Shown: in pieces, positions 3,312 through 29,068 of the stretch
Layout of the letters: each line of letters opens with the position of its first letter
Numbering within the stretch: position 1 is the stretch's first letter
From: a virus
Strand: one strand, 5' to 3'
IMG/VR virus record: IMGVR_UViG_3300028920_000137
Span: 1 to 42,024 of that record
Length of the DNA: 42,024 bases
Position numbers and translations under genes: made by a program
Notes under the pieces: generated by a model
The model's input: only the letters and a program-made list of their open reading frames with translations
The model's database searches: none
What the model was told of the DNA's origin: nothing

Positions 3312-4250
3312 CTAGGCAACGTAGGCGTTCGTTCCTTCGTAAACGTAGTACTGGTTGACGACCGTCTCGGCCGAGATGTACTCGACCTGAATCATCGTCC
3401 CGCCGTTGACGCCGCGCTCCGGGACGTTCCAGCGCCTCACCCTCTTGGGCGAGAGCGTCAGGTCGTAGCCCCAGCTCGCATCCTCAAGAGCCGGACGCGG
3501 GTTGACGCGGATCAGGTAGATGTTGTTCCCCCAGACGTAATCCAGCGATTCCGTCGCTCCCTCGTCTGCGGCATTCTTCACCTGCCCCGCAACCAGCGGA
3601 ACCATGCCCGCGACCTTCGGCGGCAGCGCCCCGAAGTTCTCCAGGCGGTCAGCGTGCGTGTACTTCACCTGCTCTTTCCAGCTCGCGCACTTGACCATGT
3701 AGCTCTTGATGTGGCGCGGGATGATGACGTGCGTGGGTGGCGCACCGGTCGCCTTCTCGAATAGCTCGGCCATGGTCTCGAGGTCCGCGAGGGGGTCGGC
3801 CGTGGCGACGGTGTTCCACTTCGTACTGGAGCTGCTGATGTCGTACTCCTGCCCCGTCGTGTCCGTCGTGGCCGCAAGAAGGGCCGCGACTCGGATCTCG
3901 CGGTTCAGGTCCAGATTCCGCGACAACTTCTCGGTCGTCGTGATCAGCGGCTTGATCGGCGCGTCCGCGTTCTTGATAACGCGGCTCGGGACGAACGACT
4001 TGAGCGCATGGCCGACGCAGATGTACGTTCCCGTCGTGGTGTACCAGCGCAGCTCGCCCGCCTCTTCGTGGTCGCCAATCACGTCTTCCGTCGGTAGCAG
4101 CTCTTCCTTGTAGAACCGATAGAAGATGTCGCTTTCCTTCGTCACCGGGACCGGCGGCAGAATCGTGTCAGCGATGAAGCCCCTGTATGAGTACGCCTCC
4201 GCGATCTTGGTGAGCGCCGTATCCTGATGCACTTCGCGCCTTGTGGGCAT
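3312..4250 (-). CDS. Major capsid protein
   Basis: This 312-residue protein sits directly after the protease/scaffold and decoration genes, the canonical place of the major head protein. Its composition and layout fit an HK97-fold capsid protein of the kind with little or no N-terminal delta domain: N-terminal TALTKIAEAYSYRGFIADTI, a central DLNREIRVAALLAAT helix, THVIIPRHIKSYM, and the C-terminal strand VNGGTMIQVEYISAETVV. The ATG at 4250 has AAGGGGGAATCC upstream. The frame is open 12 codons further but without a good start. A 115-base gap separates it from the decoration gene and shows only weak inverted repeats. Confidence 0.8.
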   Translation of the reverse strand: MPTRREVHQDTALTKIAEAYSYRGFIADTILPPVPVTKESDIFYRFYKEELLPTEDVIGDHEEAGELRWYTTTGTYICVGHALKSFVPSRVIKNADAPIKPLITTTEKLSRNLDLNREIRVAALLAATTDTTGQEYDISSSSTKWNTVATADPLADLETMAELFEKATGAPPTHVIIPRHIKSYMVKCASWKEQVKYTHADRLENFGALPPKVAGMVPLVAGQVKNAADEGATESLDYVWGNNIYLIRVNPRPALEDASWGYDLTLSPKRVRRWNVPERGVNGGTMIQVEYISAETVVNQYYVYEGTNAYVA

Positions 4251-4365
4251 TCGGATTCCCCTTCCACCCTCTACTCCACCCGGCACCGCAACGCGGGTTG
4301 CCTATCCCAACGGGAACGACTCGGGTGGGAGGGGCTATGTGAAATGCTAGCCTCGCAGAACGAAA

Positions 4366-4827
4366 CTAGCCTGCCGGTTCCATTGTGTCCGGCACGTTGA
4401 GGTTCAGCATGACAGAGCATGCGTCTCCTGCCGTGTCGGGCAAGCCAAGGCAGCGCCCATGCGTCATGTACCGCGTGTCAGCGGTGTTACCGCACGTCTT
4501 GAACCGCCCCGCCGTGTCTCCAAAGGAGATGAGGGCGCCGAGCGTGCTGATCGCAGCCTGACAGATGAACTTGGCCACGCCGGAAACCTGTAGCGACGTG
4601 CGAGTGCCGCCAGACAGTGCGGACTCAACAGCCGTCACGGGCTCCACGACGATTCCCGCGCACATTCCGGTATCGGCGGTCGTGTCTGCTGTGACCTCGA
4701 CCCGATCATCGGTCGTGTTGTCGTACAGCTCCATGCCACGGCCCTCGACGGCCGCATCACCGGACTTCACGCGATAGCCGATGTACTTCCCGTTCTTGCT
4801 TCTTGGGATACCTGAGTAGGTCGCCAT
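4366..4827 (-). CDS. Capsid decoration-type protein, DUF2190-like
   Basis: This 153-residue Gly/Thr/Ala-rich, cysteine-containing beta protein lies between the protease/scaffold and the capsid gene, the usual place of DUF2190 or gpD-like decoration proteins. The ATG at 4827 has GGAGG nine bases upstream. A GTG three codons earlier overlaps that ribosome binding site and is rejected. Phrases such as DTGMCAGIVVEPVTAV and SGVAKFICQAAIS resemble the regular beta pattern of the family. If correct, trimers would bind the outside of the expanded head. The family call rests on pattern and context. Confidence 0.6.
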   Translation of the reverse strand: MATYSGIPRSKNGKYIGYRVKSGDAAVEGRGMELYDNTTDDRVEVTADTTADTGMCAGIVVEPVTAVESALSGGTRTSLQVSGVAKFICQAAISTLGALISFGDTAGRFKTCGNTADTRYMTHGRCLGLPDTAGDACSVMLNLNVPDTMEPAG

Positions 4828-4884
4828 GTACTCCACCTCCCTTCATCGTGGGATTGTACGTCCCGTACTGCCGGGACTCAGGCA

Positions 4885-6192
4885 CTACCTGACGAGGCCT
4901 CGTTCCTCTCTCGCGAGCTGGACCGTCGCATCGGCCAAAGCGTCCGCGCGACTGAGAGAGCGCCCCTCATCTCGCGCCTGCTTGATGAGCTCTCGCGCCC
5001 GCTCCTCGATCTTGTCTGCCGCGTCGTCGTTCATGGTCGGCATCGTGAAGTCGTCTTCGGACCCGCTGCCCTCGTTGTCGTCCTCGGCCTCCTTCTCCTT
5101 CTTCTTGCGCGCCCCTTCCTCCTTCTTCATCTCTTCCCGCGTCTCATCGGCGCTGGCGCCGCCGTCATCCTCACCATGCTCTGAGAAGTCGGCGGCGTCG
5201 GGAAGCTGAGAGACGAACTCTGAGAGGACATCCACAGCATCCATCTCAACCTTCTTCCCTTCGCCGCGTGCGAACGTATAGGCCGTTTCGTCGGCGGCGA
5301 GCTTGGCGACCACGAGGCTGATACCCTCGTCGAACTTCGGCTTGATCTTCTTTCGGTGTGCACCGATGAACGCCTTGGCCCGCTCTTCAAACATACGCTT
5401 GTCACGCGCTGCGAGGCTCGAGGTCAGGGCCTCATTCCGCTCCTTCAGCTGCGCGTTCTCGTCGAGCGCGACCTCCAGTTCCGTGACTGACGTCAGCCCA
5501 CGCTTCGCAAGCAGAGCCTTCAGGTCATCCACTTTCGATCCCCCTTCCTCTGCAACCGCCTCCCCGGCGTCGCAGAACAGGTACGACATCCTGCCGACAG
5601 GCACCTCGCCGAAGTCGGCCGTCATCGCTTCGCGCACTATCGCGAACGCCGCCTCCCCACCGCTCATGCCGTACAGCCGCGGAAGGTCTGTGACGTGTTG
5701 TAGCGCTGCGATGGCGGGATGTTCCGCACCGAGCAGCGCCATGTGGTGTAGCGCGAGGTCTGCCGTGTAGTCGCCGACAGTGAGGTCGCCGGCGAGCCCC
5801 GCGCTGAAGCTGTCATATCCACCGACCTTCATCACGTCCGCTATGATCTTCGGTACGCGCATGAGGTCCCCCCAGAGGGAGAGACCTTTCCCGTCGCTGG
5901 CGGGAGCCACACGCAGATTGAACGGCGTCCCGAGACCGGGAAGACCGCCAAGCAACGCATGTTTCGCATTGTGCGTCAGGCGCAGCATGGGCCGAAACCC
6001 GCGCTTGAGCAGCTCAGCGAAGTGCAGCGGAATCCGCCGAAGTTGCTCAGCGGTCACGTTCGCAATCCGGCCTTCACTGTCTGTGTGTCGCCCTTCCTTG
6101 AACATCTCCACATTGCGAACCGTATAGGTCTGCAGGTCGGTGTTCTCGGTGTCCTCTTTGACGAACTGAACGAACTCAGATAAGAAGCGCAT
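4885..6192 (-). CDS. Head maturation protease with C-terminal scaffold (Mu gpI-like)
   Basis: This 435-residue protein has two parts. Residues 1-~215 resemble the Mu I protein prohead protease: TYTVRNVEMFKEGRH, NAKHALLGGLPGLGTPFNLRV, then a DLALHHMALLGAEHPAI block that probably holds the catalytic His. Residues ~225-435 are highly charged, coiled-coil-like and Lys/Glu/Asp-rich, as expected for an internal scaffold. In Mu the scaffold (gpZ) is made from the same reading frame by an internal start. Met residues within the scaffold part could serve here too. The gene directly precedes the decoration and capsid genes. A long acidic run near residues 340-390 is notable. Confidence 0.8.
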   Translation of the reverse strand: MRFLSEFVQFVKEDTENTDLQTYTVRNVEMFKEGRHTDSEGRIANVTAEQLRRIPLHFAELLKRGFRPMLRLTHNAKHALLGGLPGLGTPFNLRVAPASDGKGLSLWGDLMRVPKIIADVMKVGGYDSFSAGLAGDLTVGDYTADLALHHMALLGAEHPAIAALQHVTDLPRLYGMSGGEAAFAIVREAMTADFGEVPVGRMSYLFCDAGEAVAEEGGSKVDDLKALLAKRGLTSVTELEVALDENAQLKERNEALTSSLAARDKRMFEERAKAFIGAHRKKIKPKFDEGISLVVAKLAADETAYTFARGEGKKVEMDAVDVLSEFVSQLPDAADFSEHGEDDGGASADETREEMKKEEGARKKKEKEAEDDNEGSGSEDDFTMPTMNDDAADKIEERARELIKQARDEGRSLSRADALADATVQLAREERGLVR

Positions 6193-6196
6193 CTCA

Positions 6197-6673
6197 CTAC
6201 TCCCGCTCAGGGCCTTTCTCTGGAACGCCAGCGCCCGCCCGTGCCTCCATCCGCTTCACAATCGCCTCGTCGTGTGCTACTAGTCGGATCCTGTCTCCGT
6301 ATGCCCGATGAATGATGGAAGCAGGGACCTTGCCCTTCCTGAAGCCGGGGAGTTCAGCTTCGCGTTGCACGTCCTTTGCGAGCCGTTCTTCTTCTGCCCG
6401 AATCTCGCCCCCGGGCACTCTCGGTTCACCCTCTATGTGGTCAAGGTCCGTGCGGCAGTTCGGGCACAGGCACAGGCTGGGCATGACGACGATCCCCCCT
6501 TGTACCAACGGCGTCGTGCGTACCGTGTCTGTCTGCCACGAATCGCATCGGTCACACCACCGAACTGAACCCGCGCGATTCGCAGGTGGTGGAGGCGCAT
6601 GGAGTATGAGATACACGCCTCGGTCGAACCATGTTCTCGTGTCCCTGTCCCTATTCCCCGACCCTTTTGTCAA
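6197..6673 (-). CDS. Zinc-ribbon protein with trigger-factor ribosome-docking signature
   Basis: This is a small protein between the portal-MuF and protease genes. Counting from the farthest possible TTG at 6697, it has two CxxC knuckles (C48/C51 and C78/C81), consistent with a zinc ribbon. After these comes a helix-loop-helix with GFRKGKVP at residues 118-125, flanked by EERLAKDVQREAELP before and ASIIHRAYGDRIR after. The GFRxGxxP motif and its flanks are the signature of the trigger-factor N-terminal domain, the loop that docks on ribosomal protein uL23 at the tunnel exit. The TF substrate-binding and PPIase domains are absent. The start is uncertain: the TTG at 6673 with AGGGGGA upstream is used. 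The function is unknown; a link to the ribosome or to nascent capsid proteins is inference. Confidence 0.65.
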   Translation of the reverse strand: MTKGSGNRDRDTRTWFDRGVYLILHAPPPPANRAGSVRWCDRCDSWQTDTVRTTPLVQGGIVVMPSLCLCPNCRTDLDHIEGEPRVPGGEIRAEEERLAKDVQREAELPGFRKGKVPASIIHRAYGDRIRLVAHDEAIVKRMEARAGAGVPEKGPERE

Positions 6674-6689
6674 GACTTTTCTTCCCCCT

Positions 6690-9209
6690 CTACACAATGG
6701 CTAGCAGGCCGGACTCGCTCATCGCCTTGAATGCGGGCGACCGCTGGATGGCGATCCGGGCAAGCCTGTCGTCATCCACGGGCTCATGTGCCATGCCACG
6801 CAGTAGGGCAAAGAAGGTTGAGCGGCAGTCGTAGTGCGCTGGAGGCGCCTCTACCTGCCCCAGCCGGAAGGGCTGTCCGTCCATGAGGTCGCAGAAGTCG
6901 GTTGTCACTGCGTCAATGATGCTGGACCACTGGAACACTTCCCACGAGTCCCGTACGCCCATATACATCATCATGCGCCCGGCGTTGTACGCCCTCGCGT
7001 TGTTCGTTCGCACGATGGTCTCGGTATGATACGGCGAGTACAACCGATAGCCGCCCACGGTCTCTGTCTGGATTGTACCCGAGCCAATCCATTCATCGAA
7101 CATCCCGTCAATGCGACCCTCGACGCTCGACCAGTCTCCCGACCAGAAGCCGGCCTGAATCGCGCTTTTGATCTTGTTCAGGAGCATCCCGTTGTCGTTC
7201 AGGTACTGTCCTGTGACCCAAAAGGCGCGTTGCTTGATTGCTTCTGCTGCTGCCGGGTTCATGGGGATGAGCCCCTTGAAGTACTCGGCGGCCTCTTTCG
7301 GAAACAGGAAGTCACCCTCAACGGACATATAGTCCATTGTGAAGGCGGGTGCTGACTGCGCCATGTCGAGCTTCTTCCCAAGCCCGCGTTCCAGCCCCTC
7401 TTTTGCGTCCACGGCGCCGGTCAGGTGGCCCGTGAGCATCAGGCCGTGAAGCGCGTCACGGAACTGCCGCTTCCCGGCCGCATCGAGCCCGCCGAACACG
7501 TAGAGGTCAGCCTCGTTCGCTGTGCCGTCGAGAAGGCCGCTGCGATCCAGCTTCGGGATGAGCTTCTCTCGGATGCGGCCCATGGCCTGCACCATCTGTC
7601 GTTGGGCGCCCGCCTCGATCTTGTCGAGCTTCTTCCGAATCTGGTCGGGCTTGAACCCTACCGCCCGCTCCTGCGCGTTCAGCTCCCGTAGGTACTTAGC
7701 GTTCGTGTGAACACCCACGGCGACCTGCGCTTCGCTGATTGGCGGGAACTCGCGCCGCGCCGTCTGTACCGCCGGGACACGATCAACCTTCTGAGGGATG
7801 CCGCGCTTGCCGTCGTTCGACACGTCGGGATTGTCGCCCGAGTCAACATCGTCACCGTCGTCGAGGGCGTCTGCTGGCGTCGGCTTCTCGATCTCCTTGT
7901 CGAGGGAGGGTGGCCCGTCTTGCTGCCGCTCTTCCCACTCCTTCTCTGACAGCTCGGGATAGCCAAGCATCTGCCGGGTCAGATTCACGTCTGCCAGCGT
8001 CAGTGGCCCGACCGCGCCCGTAGCTGACGCCTCCGTGAACGTGGTTACCGTCTCGACGACCTCTTCCCAGCTTCGATCCTCATACTTGAAAGACGGGTAT
8101 TCATCCACGTCCCAGTTCATGTCCACGAGCCGATAGATGAGCTGTTCTGTCAGGCACGAACGTGCCAGATCAGTTGATAGGTCGCCCTTTATCCACTCGA
8201 AGATGTTTTGATGAACCTTCGATTCGGCATGGCTCCCCGTTGACGATTTGGGACCAAATCCAAGGTGTGAGGGTACGAGCAATCCATCAAGGATCGCGCG
8301 CGCGCAGGCGTCATCAAACCGCTGGAACTCCTGCCAGCTTGCGGTTTTCAGGCCAACGAACTCAAGAATCACATCGTCCGGCGATGAGAATGAGGCCGCC
8401 GTTTGGAGCTTCTTGCCCGCATTGACATACTTCGCCCGTTCTTGTGGCGAGATTCCTCGCGGGTACTTCACGTGCGGAACTCCCGATGCCGTCTTTTCCA
8501 CGAAGACGCCACGGAGCGGAAGCAGTAGCTGGCGTGCCTTGTACCAACGATATGCTACCCTTAGTACCGACTGCCCGTGAGGATCGCCGAACACGGAACC
8601 GGAATCGTGGCTGTAGATGATCCACTTCTGGGGATCGAGGTCTTTATGCTCCCCGTACTTGCTTTCCATCACCAGTGCTTCGAGGTTCCCGAAGTCGTCC
8701 CGCCGGAACCCGTACAGGAACGGCGGCTTGGTTTTTAGCGAGCACAGCCCAAACTTCCCCTTCCACGGTCCCCGCTCGATCACCCCCCAGTTGATCTCAG
8801 TGGGCGAGTAGCCGTACGCGCGGCCCGACAGGATCCCAAGCTGTGTGTCCTTGAACGTGCCCGGTAGCCCGCGCAGATTCCACTCGACGAATGCGGCTAT
8901 CTCGTCGTGCAGCGGGTCGCCTGCTTGTGCCGACTCCACACGCCATTCCGGAGCCACAACGGCCAGTGCAACCAAGCGCGTCCCGAGCTTTACCATCTCG
9001 TCTCGCCGCATCATCTCGCGATAGACAGTCAGCTTCTTCTTCTGAACCAGATCGTCGGGATTCTCGTCGCGCTCCCATTCCTTCCAGAACGAAAGCCGGG
9101 TCAGGCCTACCTCTTCCAGTAGCTTCTGCGTGGATACCCGCTCGCGTGCCATGTAGAGCACGCCGTCCTCAATGCCGAATTCACGGCCTGCGATTCGTAT
9201 GGCCGGCAA
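6690..9209 (-). CDS. Portal-MuF fusion: Mu gp29-like portal plus Mu F-like minor head protein
   Basis: This protein of about 839 residues has two domains that are separate genes in Mu. Residues ~1-460 match DUF935 (Mu gp29) portals: RLSFWKEWERDENP, an RAYGYSPTEINWGVI block and the pore-type helices. A Pro/Asp-rich linker (about 460-520) follows. The C-terminal ~300 residues carry the Mu F / SPP1 gp7 signature: IVRTNNARAYNAGRMM, FQWSSIIDAVTTDFCDLMDGQPF and PPAHYDCRSTF. The portal forms the dodecameric DNA channel, and MuF proteins act in head assembly and DNA ejection. The TTG at 9209 has AAGGAGG eight bases upstream, better placed than the GTG at 9233. It follows TerL directly. Confidence 0.88.
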   Translation of the reverse strand: MPAIRIAGREFGIEDGVLYMARERVSTQKLLEEVGLTRLSFWKEWERDENPDDLVQKKKLTVYREMMRRDEMVKLGTRLVALAVVAPEWRVESAQAGDPLHDEIAAFVEWNLRGLPGTFKDTQLGILSGRAYGYSPTEINWGVIERGPWKGKFGLCSLKTKPPFLYGFRRDDFGNLEALVMESKYGEHKDLDPQKWIIYSHDSGSVFGDPHGQSVLRVAYRWYKARQLLLPLRGVFVEKTASGVPHVKYPRGISPQERAKYVNAGKKLQTAASFSSPDDVILEFVGLKTASWQEFQRFDDACARAILDGLLVPSHLGFGPKSSTGSHAESKVHQNIFEWIKGDLSTDLARSCLTEQLIYRLVDMNWDVDEYPSFKYEDRSWEEVVETVTTFTEASATGAVGPLTLADVNLTRQMLGYPELSEKEWEERQQDGPPSLDKEIEKPTPADALDDGDDVDSGDNPDVSNDGKRGIPQKVDRVPAVQTARREFPPISEAQVAVGVHTNAKYLRELNAQERAVGFKPDQIRKKLDKIEAGAQRQMVQAMGRIREKLIPKLDRSGLLDGTANEADLYVFGGLDAAGKRQFRDALHGLMLTGHLTGAVDAKEGLERGLGKKLDMAQSAPAFTMDYMSVEGDFLFPKEAAEYFKGLIPMNPAAAEAIKQRAFWVTGQYLNDNGMLLNKIKSAIQAGFWSGDWSSVEGRIDGMFDEWIGSGTIQTETVGGYRLYSPYHTETIVRTNNARAYNAGRMMMYMGVRDSWEVFQWSSIIDAVTTDFCDLMDGQPFRLGQVEAPPAHYDCRSTFFALLRGMAHEPVDDDRLARIAIQRSPAFKAMSESGLLAIV

Positions 9210-9250
9210 AACCGGTACCTCCTTTCCCGCCACGGTAACACCGCGAGCGG

Positions 9251-10843
9251 CTAGAACTCCCCAAGCACATCTGCGATGTCGTTGCCGTCCTCGTGCTCAA
9301 ACGGGTCCGGCTCATCCTCGACGATTGACGCCATGGACGCGGACTCAATGTGAATGTCCCCCGCGCCCGCCGTGAGCAGGCGTAGGCGAGAGAACGCAAA
9401 CCACGACGCCATGAGCAGGTCGCTACTCGCGCCGGGGAAGTACCTCATCTCTTTCAACCAGACACACTCGGGGCACTCACACACGGCGTTCCCGTCGTGC
9501 CCGCCGGCGGTCGGGATGATCCATTGTCCTGCTTCGAAGGCCGGGGCGAGAGACGGTAGCCCGATCTCTGGATCAAACTTCTGCTTCCCCGTGGTGAAAG
9601 CCTGCACGGCGAGATAGGCGTCCTCCGTAACGAGCTGATCTATGAACGCCTGCTGGAAGGCATTGTTCTCAACGACGTGGACTGTAGGGCGCCACTTCGC
9701 CTCGAGCCGTAGTGCTGTTTCGATCTGCTGCCTGAACGGAAGGCGCTTGCGTACGAACTCTAGTGGGATGACCCGCCCTCCACCAATGAGCCCCAGCACG
9801 ACCGCCGCGAAGTATGCTGCGTCGTCCCGCATACTGATCGCCAGATCGTATCCAACAGCGACGGATACTAGGTGTTCGCCGTCGGGAATGTCGCCTAGAG
9901 CGAGATCGGGCCTCATGCACCGCTCGACGCTCTTCCAGTCCACGAGGGCCTCTTCCTCACCCCACGGGCGGTTGTTGAACATTCGCTCGAACTCACGATG
10001 TCCAATCTCGTTCCGGCGGGCCTCAAGTTGGGGCACGTCCCACTTCGGAGTCCAGAGCGGGACCATCGGCCCCCCGGGCTCCGGCTGGATGCGGTACACC
10101 TTCCAGTCCCAGCCTTCGCGCCGCTGAAGCTCTGAGTTCAGGTCTTGTTCGTGCCACGCTGTAGCGATTGCGACGGTGGGCGACCCCGGCTCCTTCAGGT
10201 TTGCGATCACAGAGTCATGGGCCGTGATGATTCTCGCCCTCGAGGACGGCTCCGCTATCGCGTTCTTGAAGTCGCATACGTCGTCAAGAATGATCAGGTC
10301 GGCGCGGCCTGACGTCGCAGACGACCCGATGCCCATGCCCTCGAAGGACGCATCGCGCAGGTTCTCAGTGCGGGTGATGAACATCTGGTGCTTATTCCAC
10401 TCACCCTCCCTGTCCGGCGCGAGCCGAGGAAATACCTCCCGAATGCGCGGGTTCATCTGCACGTCGCGCTCGATCTGCTGAACTGTCTCTGAGGCTTTCT
10501 GGTCGGTGTTCTGAAAGAGCTTGATGCGGATATTGGGCTTCCATGCAAGGCGGGGCTCAGTAGATCGTCCCAGCTCCCAGAGGACACGGGCTCGGGCTAT
10601 CTGCTGAGTCTTGCCGTGGTCGCGTGGTGCCATCAGCCCCGCGTTCTTCCCCCGCCGGATGCAAGATTCAATATGCTGGTGCCATTCATTGTGAAGCGGG
10701 ACGGCGTGACGGGGCCAGCCGAAGCAGTATTCATTGAACGCGCCGATGTCGCGGCGAGCCATCTCGCGCATAGCCTGAGCGTAGTTCGCCGAGAGGAAAT
10801 CGGCCTCTAGCCGTGACGCCTCGGAGACAACGTCCTGCTGCAT
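9251..10843 (-). CDS. terL: Terminase large subunit, Mu gp28-like
   Basis: This 530-residue protein is the packaging motor. It has a Walker-A-like APRDHGKT (residues 72-79) and Walker B LIILDD (183-188), as in Mu gp28-type large terminases. The C-terminal RNase-H-like nuclease begins around VAVGYDLAI (about residue 330) with the expected Asp. The C-terminal tail is very acidic (DEPDPFEHEDGNDIAD). The ATG at 10843 follows AAGGGGCGACC. It is preceded by the small terminase gene and followed by portal-MuF, the normal order. Confidence 0.9.
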   Translation of the reverse strand: MQQDVVSEASRLEADFLSANYAQAMREMARRDIGAFNEYCFGWPRHAVPLHNEWHQHIESCIRRGKNAGLMAPRDHGKTQQIARARVLWELGRSTEPRLAWKPNIRIKLFQNTDQKASETVQQIERDVQMNPRIREVFPRLAPDREGEWNKHQMFITRTENLRDASFEGMGIGSSATSGRADLIILDDVCDFKNAIAEPSSRARIITAHDSVIANLKEPGSPTVAIATAWHEQDLNSELQRREGWDWKVYRIQPEPGGPMVPLWTPKWDVPQLEARRNEIGHREFERMFNNRPWGEEEALVDWKSVERCMRPDLALGDIPDGEHLVSVAVGYDLAISMRDDAAYFAAVVLGLIGGGRVIPLEFVRKRLPFRQQIETALRLEAKWRPTVHVVENNAFQQAFIDQLVTEDAYLAVQAFTTGKQKFDPEIGLPSLAPAFEAGQWIIPTAGGHDGNAVCECPECVWLKEMRYFPGASSDLLMASWFAFSRLRLLTAGAGDIHIESASMASIVEDEPDPFEHEDGNDIADVLGEF

Positions 10844-11379: not shown

Positions 11380-12036
11380 CTATTCCTCTCGGTGCTCCCG
11401 CCAGAACAGGCACAATCCGACGACGATGGTGCCGTGCGCATCACCCGTTCCGGTACCCGTCTTGTTCCATTCTTCCCGTACGGCCAAATAGATCTCGGTT
11501 TCATCGGGATCAAGGGATATTGTCAGCCCCATGACGCGTGTGCGTTCGGGCATTCCTTCTGCCATCTTGTCGAAGTCAAAGTCGGTGAGCCGTGCATAGG
11601 CGTCTATTTTCTCCCTGCCAAATGGGAGAGTTTCCGTTAGCTCGTCGAGGCCAAATCGCGCCACGATGTCCTTCATCACGGCCGCAAGTCGCAGCTCTTC
11701 CGTTGGGAACCGCGTTTCGTTCAGCTCTACAGCAACCCGCTCGGCTTCTTGCTTGGAAATGCGGCCGAGGTTGACAACCATGACCGTTTCGTAGCCTAGC
11801 TCACGCACGACTTCGAGCCGGTGATTGCCATCGACCACCTCCAGCGCATCTGTCTTACCGATCTCGCGAACGATCAGGTTGACGATGAGGCCGTTGCGCT
11901 CAATGTTCGCCTTCAGCGCTGTTGCGCGCTCGGCATCGTCTTCCTTGTAGTTCCAAGGAGCCCGCCGCAGACGACTGACGGCCACCTCCTGCCACGCGCT
12001 GCTCAATCTTCCCACACCACGCCCCTCTCGGCCCAC
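11380..12036 (-). CDS. ParB/sulfiredoxin-fold protein, possible DpdB-like partner of DpdA
   Basis: This 218-residue protein has a ParB-N/Srx-type domain: EVAVSRLRRAPWNYKEDD, GLIVNLIVREIG, then the nucleotide-site motif DGNHRLEVVRELG and a helical segment. The C-terminal ~60 residues end in a short hydrophobic patch (TIVVGLCLFW). Such domains hydrolyse nucleotides or act as DNA-binding nuclease-like modules. Two readings are open. ParB-fold proteins are common beside phage terminases. Bacterial dpd DNA-modification clusters, however, need DpdB, a ParB/DndB-like protein, together with DpdA, and this gene overlaps dpdA by 34 bases. The start is uncertain: the GTG at 12036 is used. Confidence 0.7.
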   Translation of the reverse strand: MGREGRGVGRLSSAWQEVAVSRLRRAPWNYKEDDAERATALKANIERNGLIVNLIVREIGKTDALEVVDGNHRLEVVRELGYETVMVVNLGRISKQEAERVAVELNETRFPTEELRLAAVMKDIVARFGLDELTETLPFGREKIDAYARLTDFDFDKMAEGMPERTRVMGLTISLDPDETEIYLAVREEWNKTGTGTGDAHGTIVVGLCLFWREHREE

Positions 12037-12839
12037 AGGCTTGTCAGAAACCTCTCATACCTCACGGATTGGCAGACCCCCTCTCGCACTCTCCAATCAG
12101 TGCTATATAGCACTTCGTGGCGTCGGGCTCGCATCAGCCTTTGCTTACTTGTGAATGTCGGGGCCCTGCCGTTGCTCGTCTTGAATGCCCCACCGTACAT
12201 GGCGGGAGCGAGAACGCTGGAGCTATCTGCGGAGTAGAACGGGAATCGCTCGAGGTACTTCGCCCTGATCATGGCGAAGCCGTGTATCCGCACCGTGTCA
12301 CGGGTCAGGTCAAAGATCCGGTTCAATATCGGAATGGAGTCCCTTCCGACGCCGACGTACGTGTGCCCCTCATCAATCCAGCGTCGGAGCGTGGACAGGT
12401 TGCCGTCATCCAGTCGTGGATGATAGACTCGTATGTATCTCAAGGCCCCGCCACCCGCCGAGACCGCCTCGCGGACACGTTCATGGGCTCGCGCGAGCAC
12501 CTTCTCGGTAAGCAGCGCATACACATCAAACTCGACGACCGTGATCGCCTGATCTCCGCGCTGCTCGATCCAGCTAAGGTATTCCTCGTGGTACATCTCC
12601 GCGTCTGGTAGGCGTTTCATGCCAACCCCGCCCGCTGCCGCCCGCGTCTCGAAGAGCTTGTTCCATGAGTGCGCGCCCGAGTCTACCATCAGGCGGTAAC
12701 CCTGCTTGGTTCTGGCGTCTGCCATTATGCTCTCGGCTTCGCGTCTTTCTAACCGATAGGAATAGAGCTTGTTCCCGCCTAGCTCCAGCACGGCCTCACG
12801 AAACGAACGCCTGTGTCCCCCGGCCAGATATAGTTTCAT
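12003..12839 (-). CDS. dpdA: DpdA-type tRNA-guanine-transglycosylase homologue acting on DNA
   Basis: This 278-residue TIM-barrel-type protein matches DpdA, the TGT paralogue that swaps guanine in DNA for a 7-deazaguanine base. It shows VDSGAHSW (residues 52-59; Asp53 equals the TGT base-recognition Asp), EFDVYAL (103-109), a YVGVG loop (161-165; TGT base-binding Gly loop), HGFAM (186-190) and SADSSSVL (203-210). The last holds Asp205, the likely nucleophile, in the DSSS context typical of DpdA. It lacks the TGT zinc site, as DpdA proteins often do. The ATG overlaps the glycosyltransferase stop as ATGA. The adjacent FolE/QueD/QueE genes supply the base, which strongly supports the call. Confidence 0.88.
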   Translation of the reverse strand: MKLYLAGGHRRSFREAVLELGGNKLYSYRLERREAESIMADARTKQGYRLMVDSGAHSWNKLFETRAAAGGVGMKRLPDAEMYHEEYLSWIEQRGDQAITVVEFDVYALLTEKVLARAHERVREAVSAGGGALRYIRVYHPRLDDGNLSTLRRWIDEGHTYVGVGRDSIPILNRIFDLTRDTVRIHGFAMIRAKYLERFPFYSADSSSVLAPAMYGGAFKTSNGRAPTFTSKQRLMRARRHEVLYSTDWRVREGVCQSVRYERFLTSLWAERGVVWED

Positions 12840-13825
12840 ATCATGGCCTCAACGATGTGTCTCACGTCCGAACCTGTCTCTGGAGCCATGGGTGGAAGCG
12901 TACCCTCGAGGGCCTTCTGCACAAGCTCCGCTCCCTCAGCAAGATCATCGTACCGATACCGGTCCGAGAATAGCTCTTGGTATGACAGCCGATCTGGCAC
13001 AACGGGAACCGCGCCGCAGTTCACCGCCTCCTGCATGGCTATGCCAAACGTCTCCTGCTTCGCCGTCGAGACTGCAACGGTAGCGCGGGAGAGAAGGGCA
13101 TAGTAGGCAGCCTTGTCCCCACATACCCGCTTGGTCAGCAACCACTCGACAGCATCATGCTCGCGCCCGTACCGTGTCTGCCACAAGTCCCGCATCCGAT
13201 AGAATGCGCCGACATCCTTTTCGGGCGCCAGTCTGTGAGGGAACACGACAAGGGCTTCCCGTTCTGTATTCCGGCCACACCGGGGGCAATCTCTCGCATC
13301 TATGACGGGGAAGCGTGCGACCTCAATGCGTACAGGCGCGACGCCTCGCGCGCCGAGCACCAGTTGCCGATGGTACTCCGTTGCCACAAAGACTTGATCT
13401 ACCATTGTCAGCCAGCCGCGTTCAGAGTACTGCGCCCACGGAGTCAATCCGTTCTGACTGAGATAGTCCCACTTGTCCCACGTTCCCGCGTGCAACATTC
13501 CCGACAGCTTGATGCGCCGTCTGGCGTTGTCGCGGAGATACCCCAAGTGGCAGAGCCCGGGGAACCAAAGGTCCATGAAGAAGATCGTACCCTCAAACCC
13601 GTCCCGAATCAGGCGAATCATATCTACCATCTGCCTCGCCTTGTACTCAGACGTGCCGTACACGTCAAGGAACTGACCCACAGAGATTGTCGCGGGCCTC
13701 CTGTCCCCGACTGTTAGCACCTCGCAGCCACAGCGCTCAAAGTCCCTCATGAACCAAGAATACCACTGCGCGGAGTAGCGTTCTTCCAGCGGTTCGATAG
13801 GAACAAAGAGCACGCGCTTCCCCAT
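12836..13825 (-). CDS. QTMAN-like family 4 glycosyltransferase, predicted to act on the deazaguanine
   Basis: This 329-residue GT-B enzyme has a C-terminal half that reads like tRNA-queuosine mannosyltransferase (QTMAN, formerly GTDC1/DUF3524). FPHRLAPEKD (195-204) matches the WPHRWEHDKD block. STAKQETFGIAMQEA (253-267) with GAVPVVPDRLSYQELF matches STAKHEFFGVAMLEA with its CGCYPLCPKDLVYPEIF. The N-terminal half is less alike and holds a CPRCGRN zinc-type knuckle near 180. QTMAN adds mannose to queuosine, a 7-deazaguanine. Here the gene lies inside a deazaguanine DNA-modification operon and overlaps dpdA, so glycosylation of the inserted base is the natural inference. The sugar donor and acceptor are unknown. 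Confidence 0.8.
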   Translation of the reverse strand: MGKRVLFVPIEPLEERYSAQWYSWFMRDFERCGCEVLTVGDRRPATISVGQFLDVYGTSEYKARQMVDMIRLIRDGFEGTIFFMDLWFPGLCHLGYLRDNARRRIKLSGMLHAGTWDKWDYLSQNGLTPWAQYSERGWLTMVDQVFVATEYHRQLVLGARGVAPVRIEVARFPVIDARDCPRCGRNTEREALVVFPHRLAPEKDVGAFYRMRDLWQTRYGREHDAVEWLLTKRVCGDKAAYYALLSRATVAVSTAKQETFGIAMQEAVNCGAVPVVPDRLSYQELFSDRYRYDDLAEGAELVQKALEGTLPPMAPETGSDVRHIVEAMI

Positions 13826-13827
13826 GG

Positions 13828-15210
13828 CTATTCTCCCAAGACGCCATTTCGCGCAAGCAGCCCGTACGCCAGCGCGTCTGTGCGGGTGTGGATCAAATCG
13901 CGGAAGGTACTGCCGCGTTCAGCCCGCCTGACATACGCCGTCACATGCAGCAAGTCGCGAGCCCATGTTTCGCGGTACCATTGCCACATGGCGCGACATT
14001 CTTGCGAGACGCTGGCCCCCGTTTTCCGCCGCGCACCCCCTCTTGGCGTTGCCGCAGTGTCAAGAAAGGAGGCCGGTATCACATTGGGGAGCAGCCGGTG
14101 GTACTGCCCCTCACACCAAAGCGCCCCCTCGTCGTATCCGCCCAACACGAAAGCCGCAAGATCGAAGTATGGGACGGCGCACTGCCCCAACCCGCTGGCT
14201 GTGAAGTTGTGCCGCATAGCCGGCGTGATCGCGCTTGGATCAGCGCCGTATGCCCTCAAGAAACGCGCCGTTTCTCTCATGTGCCACGGAGTCTCTCCAG
14301 GAAGAAAACTCACGTTGAGGAAGATAACTGCCGGACGGCCCAGCTCACGCGCGGCGGCCACTGAAAGCTCCCCAAGCCGTTTGATGTCCGCGTTCTTTCC
14401 GGATAGCCGCCGCTCTGTGAGGCCGACGCCCTCAAGGCCGGTGTGTATATGAGTCATGCCATACCTGCGCACCAGCTGTGTCAGCGCAATCCCCGTTTCT
14501 TCCAGAAAAGACAACACGCTGGCCGACGTCCCCATGCAGTACCATGGCAGGCCGACGTCTCGCAACACCCCTGCAACGGCAAGTGCGCGACCGGCGTCGT
14601 CAAAGAAGTCGTTGTCGAGAACGACAAAGCCTGTAGCACCCCACCGTTCTCGCATACCGGTTGCAACAGACCTGACCTCTTCGGGCGTTAGTCTCTGCTC
14701 GCGCCACCCGCGGACCTTTCCCGAGATCGTATTCAAGCAGAACGCGCAGGCGTTTGGACAGCCACGCGTCGTGAAGAGCGGTACCGCACGGCCCTCATGC
14801 TTCCGGTCGGCAGTCAGGACCATCGATCTGTCATATCGCGCGTAGCGGCGCGCCTCGTCGTCTGTCAAACACGACGGCAACGCGATCATGGCGTCCCGGT
14901 ACGCACTCTGTGCGACGGCCGGTGCCACCGAGCCCATGCCGCAAAACCCAAGGGGCGCAGGCAAGACCGATGCCCGCCCGCCCGCTAACCGCAGAATCTT
15001 TGATGCCAGCGGCATTTGAGACTCGGCCCAGAGCGCGAGCACAAGCGGGTCGCCGCTTGAAAGGTGCACATGAGCATCTCCCATTCCCCGCACGAAATGA
15101 TGTTCTACTTCCACGCCCGCTTGCCGCTGCGCAGCGAACCAGAACCACGGATCATATGACTCTGGAGGACGCACGACCTCTTCACTGTCAATGTCTAGCA
15201 ACCGGATCAC
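13828..15210 (-). CDS. Radical SAM enzyme, probably B12-dependent, in the deazaguanine cluster
   Basis: This 460-residue protein has an N-terminal ~120-residue Rossmann-like part and a radical SAM core with C-x3-C-x2-C (RGCPNACAFC; Cys151, 155 and 158). That is the layout of cobalamin-binding radical SAM enzymes, although the usual B12-binding histidine motif is not obvious. The core continues with GFVVLDNDFF and THIHTGLEGVGLTERRLSGKN. A helical, Cys-containing C-terminal region follows. GTG at 15210 overlaps the previous stop (GTGA) and has GGAG eight bases upstream. Enzymes of this class methylate or rearrange unactivated carbons. Here it may build or alter the side chain of the 7-deazaguanine. 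The substrate is unknown. Confidence 0.78.
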   Translation of the reverse strand: MIRLLDIDSEEVVRPPESYDPWFWFAAQRQAGVEVEHHFVRGMGDAHVHLSSGDPLVLALWAESQMPLASKILRLAGGRASVLPAPLGFCGMGSVAPAVAQSAYRDAMIALPSCLTDDEARRYARYDRSMVLTADRKHEGRAVPLFTTRGCPNACAFCLNTISGKVRGWREQRLTPEEVRSVATGMRERWGATGFVVLDNDFFDDAGRALAVAGVLRDVGLPWYCMGTSASVLSFLEETGIALTQLVRRYGMTHIHTGLEGVGLTERRLSGKNADIKRLGELSVAAARELGRPAVIFLNVSFLPGETPWHMRETARFLRAYGADPSAITPAMRHNFTASGLGQCAVPYFDLAAFVLGGYDEGALWCEGQYHRLLPNVIPASFLDTAATPRGGARRKTGASVSQECRAMWQWYRETWARDLLHVTAYVRRAERGSTFRDLIHTRTDALAYGLLARNGVLGE

Positions 15211-15569
15211 AGGCCACACTCCACGGCTCCCCCCTGCCTCCCGTCTTCGGTGACCTCGACTCGGCAGGCACGCCGCCCCCCCCCGACAGCTGGCATCTCG
15301 ACCCGCAGATGTTCCGCCAGCTCTGCTGCGACCGCTTCACACGAAAACGTGCCCTTCATTCCGGGCAGCTCCCTTTCTGTCCATTCGCGAATCGCTTCGG
15401 TCACATCTTCACACGCCAGCTCTCTGTCCTTGCCAGTAACCTCCACCCACGCCCGCACCTGAAACTCGTGCTCGTGCACGTGTCGCAGATGACCGAGGTG
15501 TGTCGGAGCGTCCGGCCAACAGTGACGCGCCACGAAAGAGAAGGTTGTCACCACCCACACTCTATTCAT
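15207..15569 (-). CDS. Second QueD/PTPS-fold protein without catalytic Cys (possible DpdL-like decarboxylase)
   Basis: This 120-residue protein has the 6-pyruvoyl-tetrahydropterin synthase pattern: TTFSFVARH (His16) and HEHEFQVRA (His32, His34), the zinc triad, plus FSCEAVAAELAEHL matching TCEAIADYLW of the canonical QueD nearby. The catalytic Cys that lies four residues before the HxH in QueD is Leu28 here, so it should not make CPH4. A QueD paralogue beside full FolE-QueD-QueE suggests a later step. Phages with 2'-deoxy-7-deazaguanine have a predicted CDG decarboxylase, DpdL, and I recall but cannot confirm that it is QueD-related. The start overlaps folE (ATGAATAG). Confidence 0.75.
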   Translation of the reverse strand: MNRVWVVTTFSFVARHCWPDAPTHLGHLRHVHEHEFQVRAWVEVTGKDRELACEDVTEAIREWTERELPGMKGTFSCEAVAAELAEHLRVEMPAVGGGRRACRVEVTEDGRQGGAVECGL

Positions 15570-16167
15570 GTCCACCACCCTGAATTGCCCGCATGAACTC
15601 CGCTCGGGTCCGCGCATCTTGTCGAAACGATCCAAGCAGGACGGTCGTTTCCATGTGCGCATCTTGCTGCTTCACCCCGCGGGCGACCATGCACAGATGC
15701 CGTGCCCGAACATGGACACCGACACCCGCTGGTGACAGGCCCGTATTGATCGCGTCGGCGATCTGCTGCGTCATGCGTTCTTGGATCTGTAGCCGCCGCG
15801 CAAACGCCTCGACCACGCGCGCCAGCTTGGACACGCCCACAACCCGGCCGTCCTCTCCGGGAAGATACGCAACGGACGCCTCGCCGATGAACGGCATCAG
15901 GTGGTGTTCGCACATTGAGACGAAGCCGATGTGTCGTAGCACGATCATCTGGTCATAGTCGGGGCAACTGAAGCCGCAATCGCCGGTCACAGAGGACATC
16001 AGAAGGGCGTCAATGTCGGCGTCATATCCGGCTGTCAGCTCATCCCACATTCTGGCGACCCGTGCTGGCGTTCCGCGCAGGCCCTCCCTGTCGGGCTGCT
16101 CGCCAATGCTTGCAAGCAGCCGTACGGTTGCGGCCTCCCGTTCCTGTCTTGCGGTGTCGTGGTTCAT
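15562..16167 (-). CDS. folE: GTP cyclohydrolase I
   Basis: This 201-residue enzyme converts GTP to 7,8-dihydroneopterin triphosphate, the first step to 7-deazaguanines. The zinc ligands are visible in CEHHLMPF (Cys86, His89) and HLCMVARG (Cys159), with the catalytic HH pair. The family signature GVSKLARVVEAFARRLQIQERMTQQIADAI spans residues 111-140. The N-terminal helices (DREGLRGTPARVARMW) are complete, so this is a full type I FolE. The ATG at 16167 overlaps the queE stop (ATGA) with AGGA upstream. Its place between queE and the QueD paralogue shows the pathway is carried as one unit and feeds dpdA. Confidence 0.95.
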   Translation of the reverse strand: MNHDTARQEREAATVRLLASIGEQPDREGLRGTPARVARMWDELTAGYDADIDALLMSSVTGDCGFSCPDYDQMIVLRHIGFVSMCEHHLMPFIGEASVAYLPGEDGRVVGVSKLARVVEAFARRLQIQERMTQQIADAINTGLSPAGVGVHVRARHLCMVARGVKQQDAHMETTVLLGSFRQDARTRAEFMRAIQGGGHE

Positions 16168-16796
16168 CGGAGTCCTATGAGTTTGTGAGCCTGAATGCTC
16201 ATCTTCCATGAAGGCGATGCGCCCGCGTGTTCGATCACCTTTCTTGCCAATCGCACAGCCGCCTCATTCCCGCCGCTCCACTCGGGCTGCACGAAGTAGT
16301 CTCGAGCCTGAGGCCATGACGGGTCGAGGTCGGGTAGGGGCTCGTCGTCCAAGACGACGACCTTGATTTCGTCTGCGCGTTCGATGCGAACAGGCTGCCC
16401 CGCCTTGGGCGAAACCGTCAGCCACGGCCATTCCCACACCGCGGGCCATGACGGGGACGCTCCTGAGCAGAGTGAGTACGTCCCGTTCGTCTCCACGTGT
16501 ACCTGAATACGTCTCCGCGCCAGCTCACGAACGAGCTTCGTTAGACCCTCGCGTTGCACGAAGGGCTCGCCCCCAGTGATACAGACGTGCGGGGCGCTCA
16601 TTGTGATCACCCGCGTTATCAGCTCTCCCACGCTGACCCGCTCAGTCGCGCGATAGTCAGTGTCACACCACGGGCAGTTCAGGTTACAGTGAGCGAACCT
16701 GATGAAGAACATTGGCGTCCCGACCCACAACCCTTCCCCTTGGATCGAGCCGAACGTCTCGGCGATATCAATCAGGCCGTCAGTTGAACGCCGCAC
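16164..16796 (-). CDS. queE: 7-carboxy-7-deazaguanine synthase (radical SAM)
   Basis: This protein of about 210 residues converts 6-carboxytetrahydropterin to CDG, using SAM and a 4Fe-4S cluster. The N-terminus has ETFGSIQGEGLWVGTPMFFIRF, diagnostic of QueE, then C-x3-C-x2-C (Cys37, 41 and 44; CNLNCPWC). TGGEP is at residues 74-78, followed by ETNGT and SPKAG. GTG at 16796 is chosen because GGGAGAG lies six bases upstream. A TTG at 16811 is possible. It overlaps queD by 25 bases and folE by 4, which indicates translational coupling. Confidence 0.95.
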   Translation of the reverse strand: MRRSTDGLIDIAETFGSIQGEGLWVGTPMFFIRFAHCNLNCPWCDTDYRATERVSVGELITRVITMSAPHVCITGGEPFVQREGLTKLVRELARRRIQVHVETNGTYSLCSGASPSWPAVWEWPWLTVSPKAGQPVRIERADEIKVVVLDDEPLPDLDPSWPQARDYFVQPEWSGGNEAAVRLARKVIEHAGASPSWKMSIQAHKLIGLR

Positions 16797-17119
16797 CTGT
16801 CGCTCTCCCAAAGCTCCAGCTCAACCACTTCCACGCCCGGCGGCATCGCACACGACAACGACTTCCACAGGTAGTCAGCTATGGCCTCACACGTGGGCGA
16901 CGCCTCTAGGTTCAGGTCGTTCAGGTAGGAGTGGTCTGGTAGTATCGTGTCGATGATCTTCTTCAGCGTCAGGAAGTCCGTAGCCATGCTTGTCACTTCG
17001 CTGACCGGCGCCGATACTGTGACTGTCCCGCGCCACGTGTGCCCGTGCAGCTCCGCACACGCACCCGGATGACCGGGCAAGCGGTGAGCCGCGCAGAACT
17101 TGAATCGCACCCGCTGCAT
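16772..17119 (-). CDS. queD: 6-carboxytetrahydropterin synthase
   Basis: This 115-residue QueD makes 6-carboxy-5,6,7,8-tetrahydropterin from dihydroneopterin triphosphate. The zinc ligands are His12 (CAAHRL) and His25/His27 (LHGHTW). The catalytic Cys21 (GACAELHGH) is in place, as are His63 of PDHSYL and Glu105 of LWES. The length is normal. The first possible ATG (17152) falls on the edge of a terminator hairpin, so the ATG at 17119 is used, although no clear Shine-Dalgarno is visible. It is the first gene of the modification cluster. Confidence 0.93.
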   Translation of the reverse strand: MQRVRFKFCAAHRLPGHPGACAELHGHTWRGTVTVSAPVSEVTSMATDFLTLKKIIDTILPDHSYLNDLNLEASPTCEAIADYLWKSLSCAMPPGVEVVELELWESDRCGVQLTA

Positions 17120-25482: not shown

Positions 25483-26052
25483 TCACGACTTCGGCGATGT
25501 GATCCGCAGCGATTCCGGCGTCCGATCCCACGCAAAACCGGGCGGCAGCTCTCCGGTCTGCTTCATGTGTGTCAACGCCTTCCTCGTGTCGCCGCTCTTC
25601 GTGTATCGCGCAAACTCCTCGGGTACTGCCTCAATGTCTGTGACAATGAGTTTGTCCCTGCCCTCGAGCCGCGATACCGTGAACCCCGCCTTCGTCTTGA
25701 CGCTCTTGTGGTTGTCTTCTTCGAGAAGAACCCGCATCACTTCTCGGCATACCACGCCCCATCTTTCAGCCGTCGTTCGCTCCAAGGACACTCGCTGAAC
25801 TTCGCGCTTTGCTGCGGCAGCCACTGCCCCATAGGCGTCAGCTACCAGCACAAGAATGTCGAGAGCATCCGGCATGGTCGGGGCAAGAGCACGCGCCGCC
25901 TCGACTACAGCCGCAAGCCCGCCTTCCGGCTCGTCATCGTTGATGAAGTCAGTGAGGGTGTCGTGAAAGGCAGGTGCAAGTGTGGATCGAAGCACGCGCG
26001 TGAGTGGTGTGAGTTCGTTGTGCAGCTGTCGCTCGTCTTCTTTGTGTGTCAT
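25483..26052 (-). CDS. Gp157-like siphovirus protein
   Basis: This 189-residue protein matches the C-terminal pattern of the siphovirus Gp157 family: a helical N-terminal half with AAKREVQRVSLERTTAERWGVV, KAGFTVSRLEGRDKLIVTDIEAVPEEFARY, then MKQTGELPPGFAWDRTPESLRI. Gp157 proteins usually sit beside recombination genes and, in Streptococcus, were linked to phage resistance. The ATG at 26052 has GGAGGGG upstream. The downstream neighbour is the putative recombination protein, which fits the usual context. Confidence 0.7.
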   Translation of the reverse strand: MTHKEDERQLHNELTPLTRVLRSTLAPAFHDTLTDFINDDEPEGGLAAVVEAARALAPTMPDALDILVLVADAYGAVAAAAKREVQRVSLERTTAERWGVVCREVMRVLLEEDNHKSVKTKAGFTVSRLEGRDKLIVTDIEAVPEEFARYTKSGDTRKALTHMKQTGELPPGFAWDRTPESLRITSPKS

Positions 26053-26088
26053 ATTCGGCTCCCCTCCGGTTGTGGCCGGGTACCAAAA

Positions 26089-26133
26089 CAAGGATGCCCA
26101 AGGCACGGTCGTGGTGACACTTGGGCATCCTTG
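26089..26133 (-). terminator. Perfect 14-bp inverted repeat upstream of the Gp157-like gene
   Basis: CAAGGATGCCCAAG (26089-26102) and CTTGGGCATCCTTG (26120-26133) are exact inverted copies with a 17-base loop. Read on the minus strand the stem is followed by TTTT (TTGTTTTGG). It lies between the 144-residue gene (stop 26215) and the Gp157-like start (26052). It may end transcription, attenuate it, or act as an operator. Confidence 0.6.
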
Positions 26134-27924: not shown

Positions 27925-28815
27925 TCACCGCACCATGTCGGTGATCTTCAGCCTGTGCGGCTCGCCGCGTGCCTCGTCGATCACCGCCGACACGGCATCT
28001 GCGATTGTGACTGCGGCCTTGAGGATGCGGGCGCCTTCAGCCTTGATGTAGTCCACGTCTGCGTGCCACGACCCGAGGTACTCACCGCCGCCCTCAACGG
28101 TCATGCCGAGCATACGGCAGGCGACCATCGCCGTCGCCTCTGCCTCGGTCTCGCGCTGACCCCGTGTCGTGGTCTCGCGCCGGTTGCTGTGGTCGAGTAC
28201 GTTGTGAGCGCACTCGTGGACCAGCGCGTGAATCGCCACCGGTCGGTCCTGCGCGTTATAGACCTTGCCGTTCTTGCCGTTCGTGTGGCCGCCTATCGTG
28301 TTCACGCGGTCGTCGGTGACGATGTCGTGGACCTCGGCGGCGTACTGCTCAGTCGCGGCCCACAGCACGTCCATGTCGGCGGCGTACGCCCGGAGCGGTA
28401 TGTCCAGTTTGAAGTCCGCGCCCTCCGTCTGGCTCACGTCGAAGGTCTTGCCCGTTGTGAACCCGCGTAGCCACTCGACCACCTTGTCCTCGCCGTCGTC
28501 TTCAACGACGCGCCGTCCCTTGATCGGCACGAACACCATCAACCCATGCTCGCCCTCCTTGACGTGTCGCCCGAGCGCCTTCCACGCCTTGTAGCTCGCG
28601 CAGAGCGTAGCGTCCGGGCGCTGTGCGAGGATCAAGAGGGTGTTGCACAGCGAGTAGTTATGGAATCCGCTCTGCCACCGCACCGCCCATTCGGTGAGGC
28701 GGTCAGGGTCCGTGACGATCTCGCCGGCGACGTCTTCGAGGTATCGCGCCGCACGTTCTCGCCACGCCTTGCGCTCTTCGGGGGTGTACTTGTCTGCATA
28801 CGTCTTCCGTGACAT
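27925..28815 (-). CDS. ArdC-like antirestriction protein: ssDNA-binding domain plus metallopeptidase
   Basis: This 296-residue protein starts at ATG 28815 with GGAGG six bases upstream. Residues ~1-120 match the ArdC N-terminal domain (DUF1738): helical start, WQSGFHNYSLCNTLLILAQRPDATLCASYKAWKALGRHVKEGEHGLMVFVP. The C-terminal half is an IrrE/ImmA-like zinc peptidase with HECAH (residues 200-204), followed by a helix with the third ligand region (ETEAEATAMVACRMLGM). ArdC proteins protect incoming DNA from restriction. A phage that also modifies its DNA would thus have two separate anti-restriction layers. Confidence 0.85.
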   Translation of the reverse strand: MSRKTYADKYTPEERKAWRERAARYLEDVAGEIVTDPDRLTEWAVRWQSGFHNYSLCNTLLILAQRPDATLCASYKAWKALGRHVKEGEHGLMVFVPIKGRRVVEDDGEDKVVEWLRGFTTGKTFDVSQTEGADFKLDIPLRAYAADMDVLWAATEQYAAEVHDIVTDDRVNTIGGHTNGKNGKVYNAQDRPVAIHALVHECAHNVLDHSNRRETTTRGQRETEAEATAMVACRMLGMTVEGGGEYLGSWHADVDYIKAEGARILKAAVTIADAVSAVIDEARGEPHRLKITDMVR

Positions 28816-28834
28816 CGGGCCTCCTTCGGTAGTG

Positions 28835-29068
28835 CTACACTCCGCGCTCCATGTTGACATCGGCGGTCGCGTTCTCCCAACACCGCTGACATAGGACAAC
28901 CGCACCGGACGGACTGCCCGGAACGCCGACCACGTAGAACCGCTCTCCGGCGACGAACTCAGCGCCGCAGTCGTCGCATGAGACATCATCGTCAGGGTGG
29001 TACCGTACGACCCGCACCGTGGAGCGCGGATCGTTCTCTTGGTCTAGTGCAACCTCGTAGCAGGACAT
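28835..29068 (-). CDS. Small CxxC zinc-ribbon protein, paralogue of the product of 29089-29313
   Basis: This 77-residue protein starts MSCYEVALDQENDP, with CDDCGAEF (~31-38) and LCQRCWENA (~60-67) as the zinc knuckles. The neighbouring protein at 29089-29313 has MSCYDHAHAEETDP, CDGCGRVF and LCQSCMQLW at the same places. The two genes are tandem copies that have diverged strongly. The fold is a small zinc ribbon. Function unknown. Confidence 0.7.
   Translation of the reverse strand: MSCYEVALDQENDPRSTVRVVRYHPDDDVSCDDCGAEFVAGERFYVVGVPGSPSGAVVLCQRCWENATADVNMERGV

What the first reader, a model, noticed from the sequence alone, without database searches (positions are those of the whole stretch)
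6197..6673. Phage protein with the trigger-factor ribosome-binding signature and a zinc ribbon
GFRKGKVP with a leading amphipathic helix and a following IIHRAYGDRIR reproduces the TF helix-loop-helix that docks on uL23. Nothing else of TF is present; instead there is a C-x2-C/C-x2-C zinc part. It sits in the head operon, next to the portal, protease and capsid. It could place a factor at the ribosome exit to handle nascent head proteins, or block host TF. I know of no described phage protein of this design.
Basis: partly seen in the sequence, partly recalled or inferred. Interest (0 to 1): 0.85.

Follow-up and report, generated by a model that had tools for sequence, protein, structure and literature searches.

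The report
Phage protein with chaperone's ribosome-docking hairpin
A small phage protein encoded among the capsid genes carries a genuine copy of the helical hairpin that the bacterial chaperone trigger factor uses to sit on the ribosome, attached to a probable zinc-binding module instead of the rest of the chaperone; this suggests that a phage borrowed the docking part to act where new proteins leave the ribosome, but it is a single example and nobody has tested it.

Summary
The 158-aa ORF (minus strand, TTG 6673 to stop 6197) matches Pfam Trigger_N over the ribosome-docking hairpin only (E 1.6e-10, 41.9 bits, cut-off 22.2). GFRKGKVP is complete. On a TF-only profile it scores 47.8 bits; 2,000 shuffles reach at most 4.5. 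In 297 Acidobacteriota genomes it rings trigger factor genes almost exclusively. With trigger factor rows in the alignment, AlphaFold2 gives a confident helix-loop-helix that overlays ribosome-bound E. coli TF at 1.5 A over 59 residues. The TF beta-sheet, PPIase and chaperone domains are absent; a Cys4 motif precedes the hairpin. The gene lies in a tight operon between portal/MuF and protease. No second copy of this architecture was found in any collection reached, so conservation could not be tested. Best reading: a trigger-factor docking hairpin captured by a phage and mounted on a zinc-ribbon-like module, probably to place it at the ribosomal tunnel exit in late infection. Homology is shown; ribosome binding and purpose are inferred. 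Closest precedent: plant Tig2, a trigger factor reduced to its ribosome-binding domain. New variant of a known kind.

The parts
6197..6673 (-). the gene: 158-aa protein, TTG start, stop TAG 6197-6199
   Evidence: GGGGGAAG Shine-Dalgarno at 6681-6688
6443..6565 (-). zinc-ribbon-like part, residues 37-77: C40-x2-C43, C68, C70-x2-C73
   Evidence: beta hairpins predicted at about pLDDT 50-70; no Pfam family at E<=1
6248..6421 (-). stretch homologous to trigger factor N-terminal domain (residues 85-142), profile positions 18-75 of 144
   Evidence: Pfam Trigger_N E 1.6e-10, six-frame E 4e-12
6359..6412 (-). first helix of the hairpin (residues 88-105)
   Evidence: AlphaFold2 with TF alignment; also seen, at low confidence, without alignment
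6323..6346 (-). docking loop GFRKGKVP (residues 110-117)
   Evidence: identical to several TFs; G, F, R, G, K and P invariant across 26 aligned rows
6233..6322 (-). second, long helix (residues 118-147)
   Evidence: AlphaFold2
6690..9233 (-). upstream neighbour: Mu-type portal fused to MuF-like head morphogenesis domain
   Evidence: Pfam PF06074 E 2e-39, PF04233 3.5e-6 just below cut-off; phrog_113 and phrog_241
4885..6192 (-). downstream neighbour: head maturation protease; its ATG lies 4 nt after the stop of this gene
   Evidence: phrog_3894 E 1e-14; sequence
3312..4286 (-). major head protein
   Evidence: phrog_1005 E 8.5e-37

Best explanation
The phage gene contains the ribosome-docking helix-loop-helix of trigger factor, captured from a cellular or viral TF gene and mounted on a small zinc-ribbon-like module in place of TF's beta-sheet, PPIase and chaperone domains. 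It is made with the head proteins. The intact FRK loop docks it next to uL23 at the tunnel exit, where it competes with host TF for the site and presents the zinc module to nascent chains or to a partner. Shown: sequence homology, intact docking loop, missing TF body, place in the operon; predicted: hairpin fold. Inferred: zinc binding, ribosome binding, competition with TF, role in late infection.
For: Trigger_N E 1.6e-10 and tig E 1.3e-10 over N-terminal positions only; 47.8 bits against 4.5 for the best shuffle, as high as the 47.1 bits of one full-length TF in the set. TF genes are found almost exclusively when the single protein is run against 297 Acidobacteriota genomes (143 ring at E<=1e-3, matches nearly all within query 83-142). 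HLH predicted at pLDDT about 95, rmsd 1.5 A over 59 residues to the TF segment resolved on the E. coli ribosome (8zfi_V, Z 7.0), with TF leading the Foldseek list; similar helices appear without an alignment. The loop is 7 or 8 of 8 identical to three close TFs while flanks are only 22-28% identical. Replacing FRK with AAA lowers TF's ribosome-bound occupancy in living E. coli to 20%, against 85% for wild type (PMC11725819). Tight operon with strong Shine-Dalgarno.
Against: A single sequence: no relative with this architecture in any collection reached, so neither the loop nor the cysteines can be shown to be conserved in it. TF's docking hairpin normally sits on a beta-sheet, absent here. The confident model used TF rows, so it is biased to the TF shape; without them mean pLDDT is 37.5. 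The flanks' divergence may simply reflect an unsampled host TF, so loop retention is not proof of selection. GC3 (0.65) is below that of the neighbours (0.75-0.85), so it may be a recent arrival.
Confidence: 0.5

Rival explanations
1. Translation regulator of the Com kind: the zinc ribbon binds a phage mRNA and the TF hairpin keeps it on ribosomes, tuning synthesis of a head or DNA-modification gene.
For: In L011 and L012, the two best portal hits, the same slot directly after the portal-MuF gene holds a 58-aa zinc ribbon resembling Mu Com (phrog_6417 'translational regulator' E 5.6e-4; Zn_ribbon_Com E 0.002, below cut-off). This phage also carries what look like 7-deazaguanine genes.
Against: The window's zinc part matches no Com family and has a longer spacing between Cys pairs. 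Position alone links them.
Confidence: 0.15
2. Chance capture: a fragment of a host trigger factor gene fell into a phage ORF, folds as a hairpin and has no ribosomal role.
For: Singleton, lower GC3, no relatives. A comparable capture may exist: phage contig L079 has a 75-aa TF start just after a tRNA-Gly and no Trigger_C.
Against: Open frame with strong Shine-Dalgarno and 4-nt spacing to the protease; the loop is fully intact while the flanks are diverged.
Confidence: 0.2
3. Head protein or assembly factor: the hairpin is used for protein contacts in the procapsid, not on the ribosome.
For: The gene lies between portal and protease and probably shares its transcript with head genes.
Against: No head family matches it, and most relatives' head operons lack such a gene; keeping the exact docking loop would be unexplained.
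Confidence: 0.15

Closest known systems
Bacterial trigger factor, N-terminal ribosome-binding domain (Pfam PF05697 Trigger_N)
   Same: Docking helix-loop-helix with GFRKGKVP, nearly ungapped homology over about 57 residues, predicted shape
   Different: No beta-sheet platform, no PPIase and no C-terminal chaperone domain; 158 aa with a Cys4 part placed before the hairpin; phage gene
Plant Tig2, truncated trigger factor with only the ribosome-binding domain (PMC11731035)
   Same: The TF docking element used without the chaperone body, for a task other than folding
   Different: Tig2 keeps the whole ribosome-binding domain with its four beta-strands, acts in chloroplast ribosome biogenesis, and has no zinc part described
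Full-length trigger-factor-like proteins on viral contigs (PHROG 26774; L059, L070)
   Same: TF docking hairpin encoded on viral contigs
   Different: About 415-420 aa with Trigger_C
Phage-encoded ribosomal proteins such as bS21 and bL12 (PMC6375957, PMC7162821)
   Same: A phage supplies a part that sits on host ribosomes
   Different: Different site and fold; neither paper's text mentions trigger factor
Mu Com-like zinc ribbon
   Same: Small zinc-ribbon gene in a Mu-like phage; a Com-like ribbon occupies the same slot in L011
   Different: No Com match for the window protein; the Com-like protein of L011 has no TF hairpin

Membership tests
Trigger factor (full protein) | N-terminal docking hairpin with GFRKGKVP-type loop | tested here: met
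   Trigger_N E 1.6e-10 above curated cut-off; G, F, R, G, K, P of the loop invariant across 26 aligned rows
Trigger factor (full protein) | Complete ribosome-binding domain, including beta-strands on both sides of the hairpin | tested here: not met
   Only profile positions 18-75 of 144 match; no strands after the second helix in the model
Trigger factor (full protein) | C-terminal chaperone domain (Trigger_C) | tested here: not met
   Absent from the window
Trigger factor (full protein) | Equivalog score of TIGR00115 | tested here: not met
   40.7 bits against a cut-off of 180.2
Trigger factor (full protein) | FRK-dependent ribosome binding at uL23 | not testable with these tools
   FRK is present; binding needs the bench
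Tig2-like RBD-only trigger factor | Whole N-terminal domain on its own | tested here: not met
   Hairpin only, joined to a Cys4 part
Mu Com zinc ribbon (PF10122) | Match to the Com profile | tested here: not met
   No match for the whole protein at E<=10 or the zinc part alone at E<=1
Zinc ribbon (general) | Two Cys pairs in a beta-hairpin fold that binds zinc | tested here: inconclusive
   Cys4 pattern present; strands predicted at about pLDDT 50-70; metal binding not testable

The most novel reading that the evidence does not exclude
A phage has built an adaptor for the ribosomal tunnel exit from the bare trigger-factor docking hairpin and a zinc module, so as to displace host TF or to act on nascent phage proteins during head assembly.
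Probability: 0.4. Interest if true: 0.8.

Novelty: new variant of a known kind. Interest (0 to 1): 0.6.

Why it matters
Phages are known to supply ribosomal proteins and other parts that act on host ribosomes, but the searches of the open paper library made here turned up none built on trigger factor's docking element. If it binds, it would show that the hairpin works as a portable ribosome-docking module without its beta-sheet, and that a phage intervenes at the tunnel exit during late gene expression. It is directly testable with one purified protein and one three-residue mutant.

Tried and rejected
L002, a first hit in IMG/VR, does not lie in a matching ORF and looks like chance. Phage-collection hits H1, H2, H18 and H20 are complete bacterial TFs on unverified fecal contigs, and H8 is an annotated tig gene. 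L004: a lone GFRKGKIP in an unrelated 155-aa ORF, 16 bits. Terminase as bait found no relative in IMG/VR; portal as bait found 30, and no Trigger_N match turned up anywhere in the 28 of those contigs that were searched whole plus 3 named phages. Short ORFs among the TF matches are genes cut by contig ends, one broken gene in a draft genome (L091), or L079. Extra matches in G118 and G169 carry no docking motif. Single-sequence AlphaFold2 (pLDDT 37.5) is too poor for a fold search. The zinc part could not be modelled on its own (prediction cap reached). No solved zinc fold was matched in the fold comparison, but that comparison barely tested this part. Host identity was not established.

Full report
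What is there. The ORF on the minus strand from TTG 6673 to TAG 6197 encodes 158 aa. A Shine-Dalgarno GGGGGAAG (6681-6688) precedes the TTG, just past the stop of the portal gene, and the ATG of the head maturation protease follows 4 nt after its stop. The gene is therefore part of a closely packed operon: terminase (9251-10843), Mu-type portal fused to a MuF-like domain (6690-9233), this gene, protease (4885-6192), a small protein (4366-4836) and the major head protein (3312-4286).

Is it more than chance. Pfam Trigger_N matches residues 85-142 at E 1.6e-10, 41.9 bits against a curated cut-off of 22.2. NCBIfam tig matches its N-terminal positions 8-64 of 410 at E 1.3e-10, far below the cut-off for the full protein. 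Solved structures matched by sequence are headed by trigger factors. A profile made only from trigger factors of other contigs gives this ORF 47.8 bits; 2,000 shuffles of the protein and every other ORF of the window reach at most 4.5. One complete trigger factor in the same set scores no more than that. When the single protein is run against 297 Acidobacteriota genomes, 143 ring, almost always in one open frame of trigger-factor length, and over query residues 83-142. The homology is real.

What is missing. Only profile positions 18-75 of 144 are matched: the end of the second strand, first helix, docking loop and second helix (the assignment of TF elements rests on general knowledge of the TF structure). 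The rest of the domain is not recognised, Trigger_C is absent, and Trigger_N occurs once in the window. In front of the hairpin stands C40-x2-C43 ... C70-x2-C73 with an extra C68. This part resembles a zinc ribbon by pattern only: it has no Pfam match of its own, and its predicted strands have pLDDT of about 50-70.

Structure. Without an alignment, AlphaFold2 is poor (pLDDT 37.5), yet it places helices at 88-106, 118-128 and 136-146. With 25 trigger-factor rows covering only the hairpin, residues 90-140 reach about 95, with a helix 88-105, the loop and a long helix 118-147. That model's best Foldseek matches are trigger factors, with E-values of 0.01 and above but probability 1.00 for most, and it overlays the E. 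coli TF segment seen on a ribosome (8zfi_V) at 1.5 A over 59 residues, Z 7.0. Z values in that range can be reached by common helical arrangements, and the alignment biases the model, so this supports the sequence result without being independent of it.

Relatives. Two scans of IMG/VR for the docking motif, confirmed by tblastn, returned 36 and 34 loci, largely the same contigs. Apart from genes cut by contig ends and one 75-aa truncated start (L079), they encode trigger factors of full length. A genome scan found one locus, a trigger factor of an Acidobacteriota MAG. Phage and plasmid records gave only trigger factors or weak matches. Thirty portal relatives were fetched. None of the 28 of their contigs searched whole, nor three named phages, has a Trigger_N match. 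Most of those inspected have no gene between portal and protease, but L011 and L012, the two best portal hits, have a 58-aa zinc ribbon there that resembles the Mu translational regulator Com. The metagenome collection could not be searched.

How it most likely works. In trigger factor the FRK element makes the ribosome contact: the FRK-to-AAA mutant spends 20% of its time in the slow, ribosome-bound state in living E. coli against 85% for wild type (PMC11725819). Here the eight-residue loop is fully kept, while the 50 residues around it are only 22-28% identical to close trigger factors. The simplest reading is a docking module that still docks. It would bring a zinc-ribbon-like part to the tunnel exit and, by occupying the site, compete with host TF. 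The purpose, whether to spare nascent head proteins, to hinder the host, or to regulate a phage message in the manner of Com, is open. Against this stand the missing beta-sheet and the fact that this is a single sequence.

Novelty. A trigger-factor ribosome-binding domain used alone is known from plants (Tig2, PMC11731035), and phages that supply ribosomal proteins are known (PMC6375957, PMC7162821). A phage protein made of the bare docking hairpin on a zinc-ribbon-like part is, as far as the searches here reach, not described. It is rated a new variant of a known kind.

Noticed in passing
window 12003-16811 (-): Probable 7-deazaguanine set: TGT-like protein (phrog_887, E 5e-15), radical SAM protein, PTPS/QueD-like protein just under its cut-off, GTP cyclohydrolase I and QueE-like protein, next to a ParB-like gene at 11380-12036. 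Possibly DNA modification.
   Followed up: partly
L079:3726-4174: Viral contig with a tRNA-Gly followed by a 75-aa truncated trigger factor start with a strong Shine-Dalgarno, ending in a hydrophobic tail; the contig has no Trigger_C and the junction occurs in no other IMG/VR contig.
   Followed up: partly
L059, L064, L070: Trigger-factor-like proteins of roughly 415-514 aa on viral contigs up to 266 kb; L059 and L070 match PHROG 26774, annotated as unknown function, which therefore looks like a viral trigger factor family.
   Followed up: partly
L011:3040-3216: Com-like zinc ribbon in the slot between portal-MuF and protease in one of the two best portal hits.
   Followed up: partly
window 27925-28989 (-): ArdC-type anti-restriction protein (ArdcN E 1.1e-9).
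   Followed up: no
window 25483-26106 (-): Mu Gam-like end-protection protein (phrog_253, E 9e-6).
   Followed up: no
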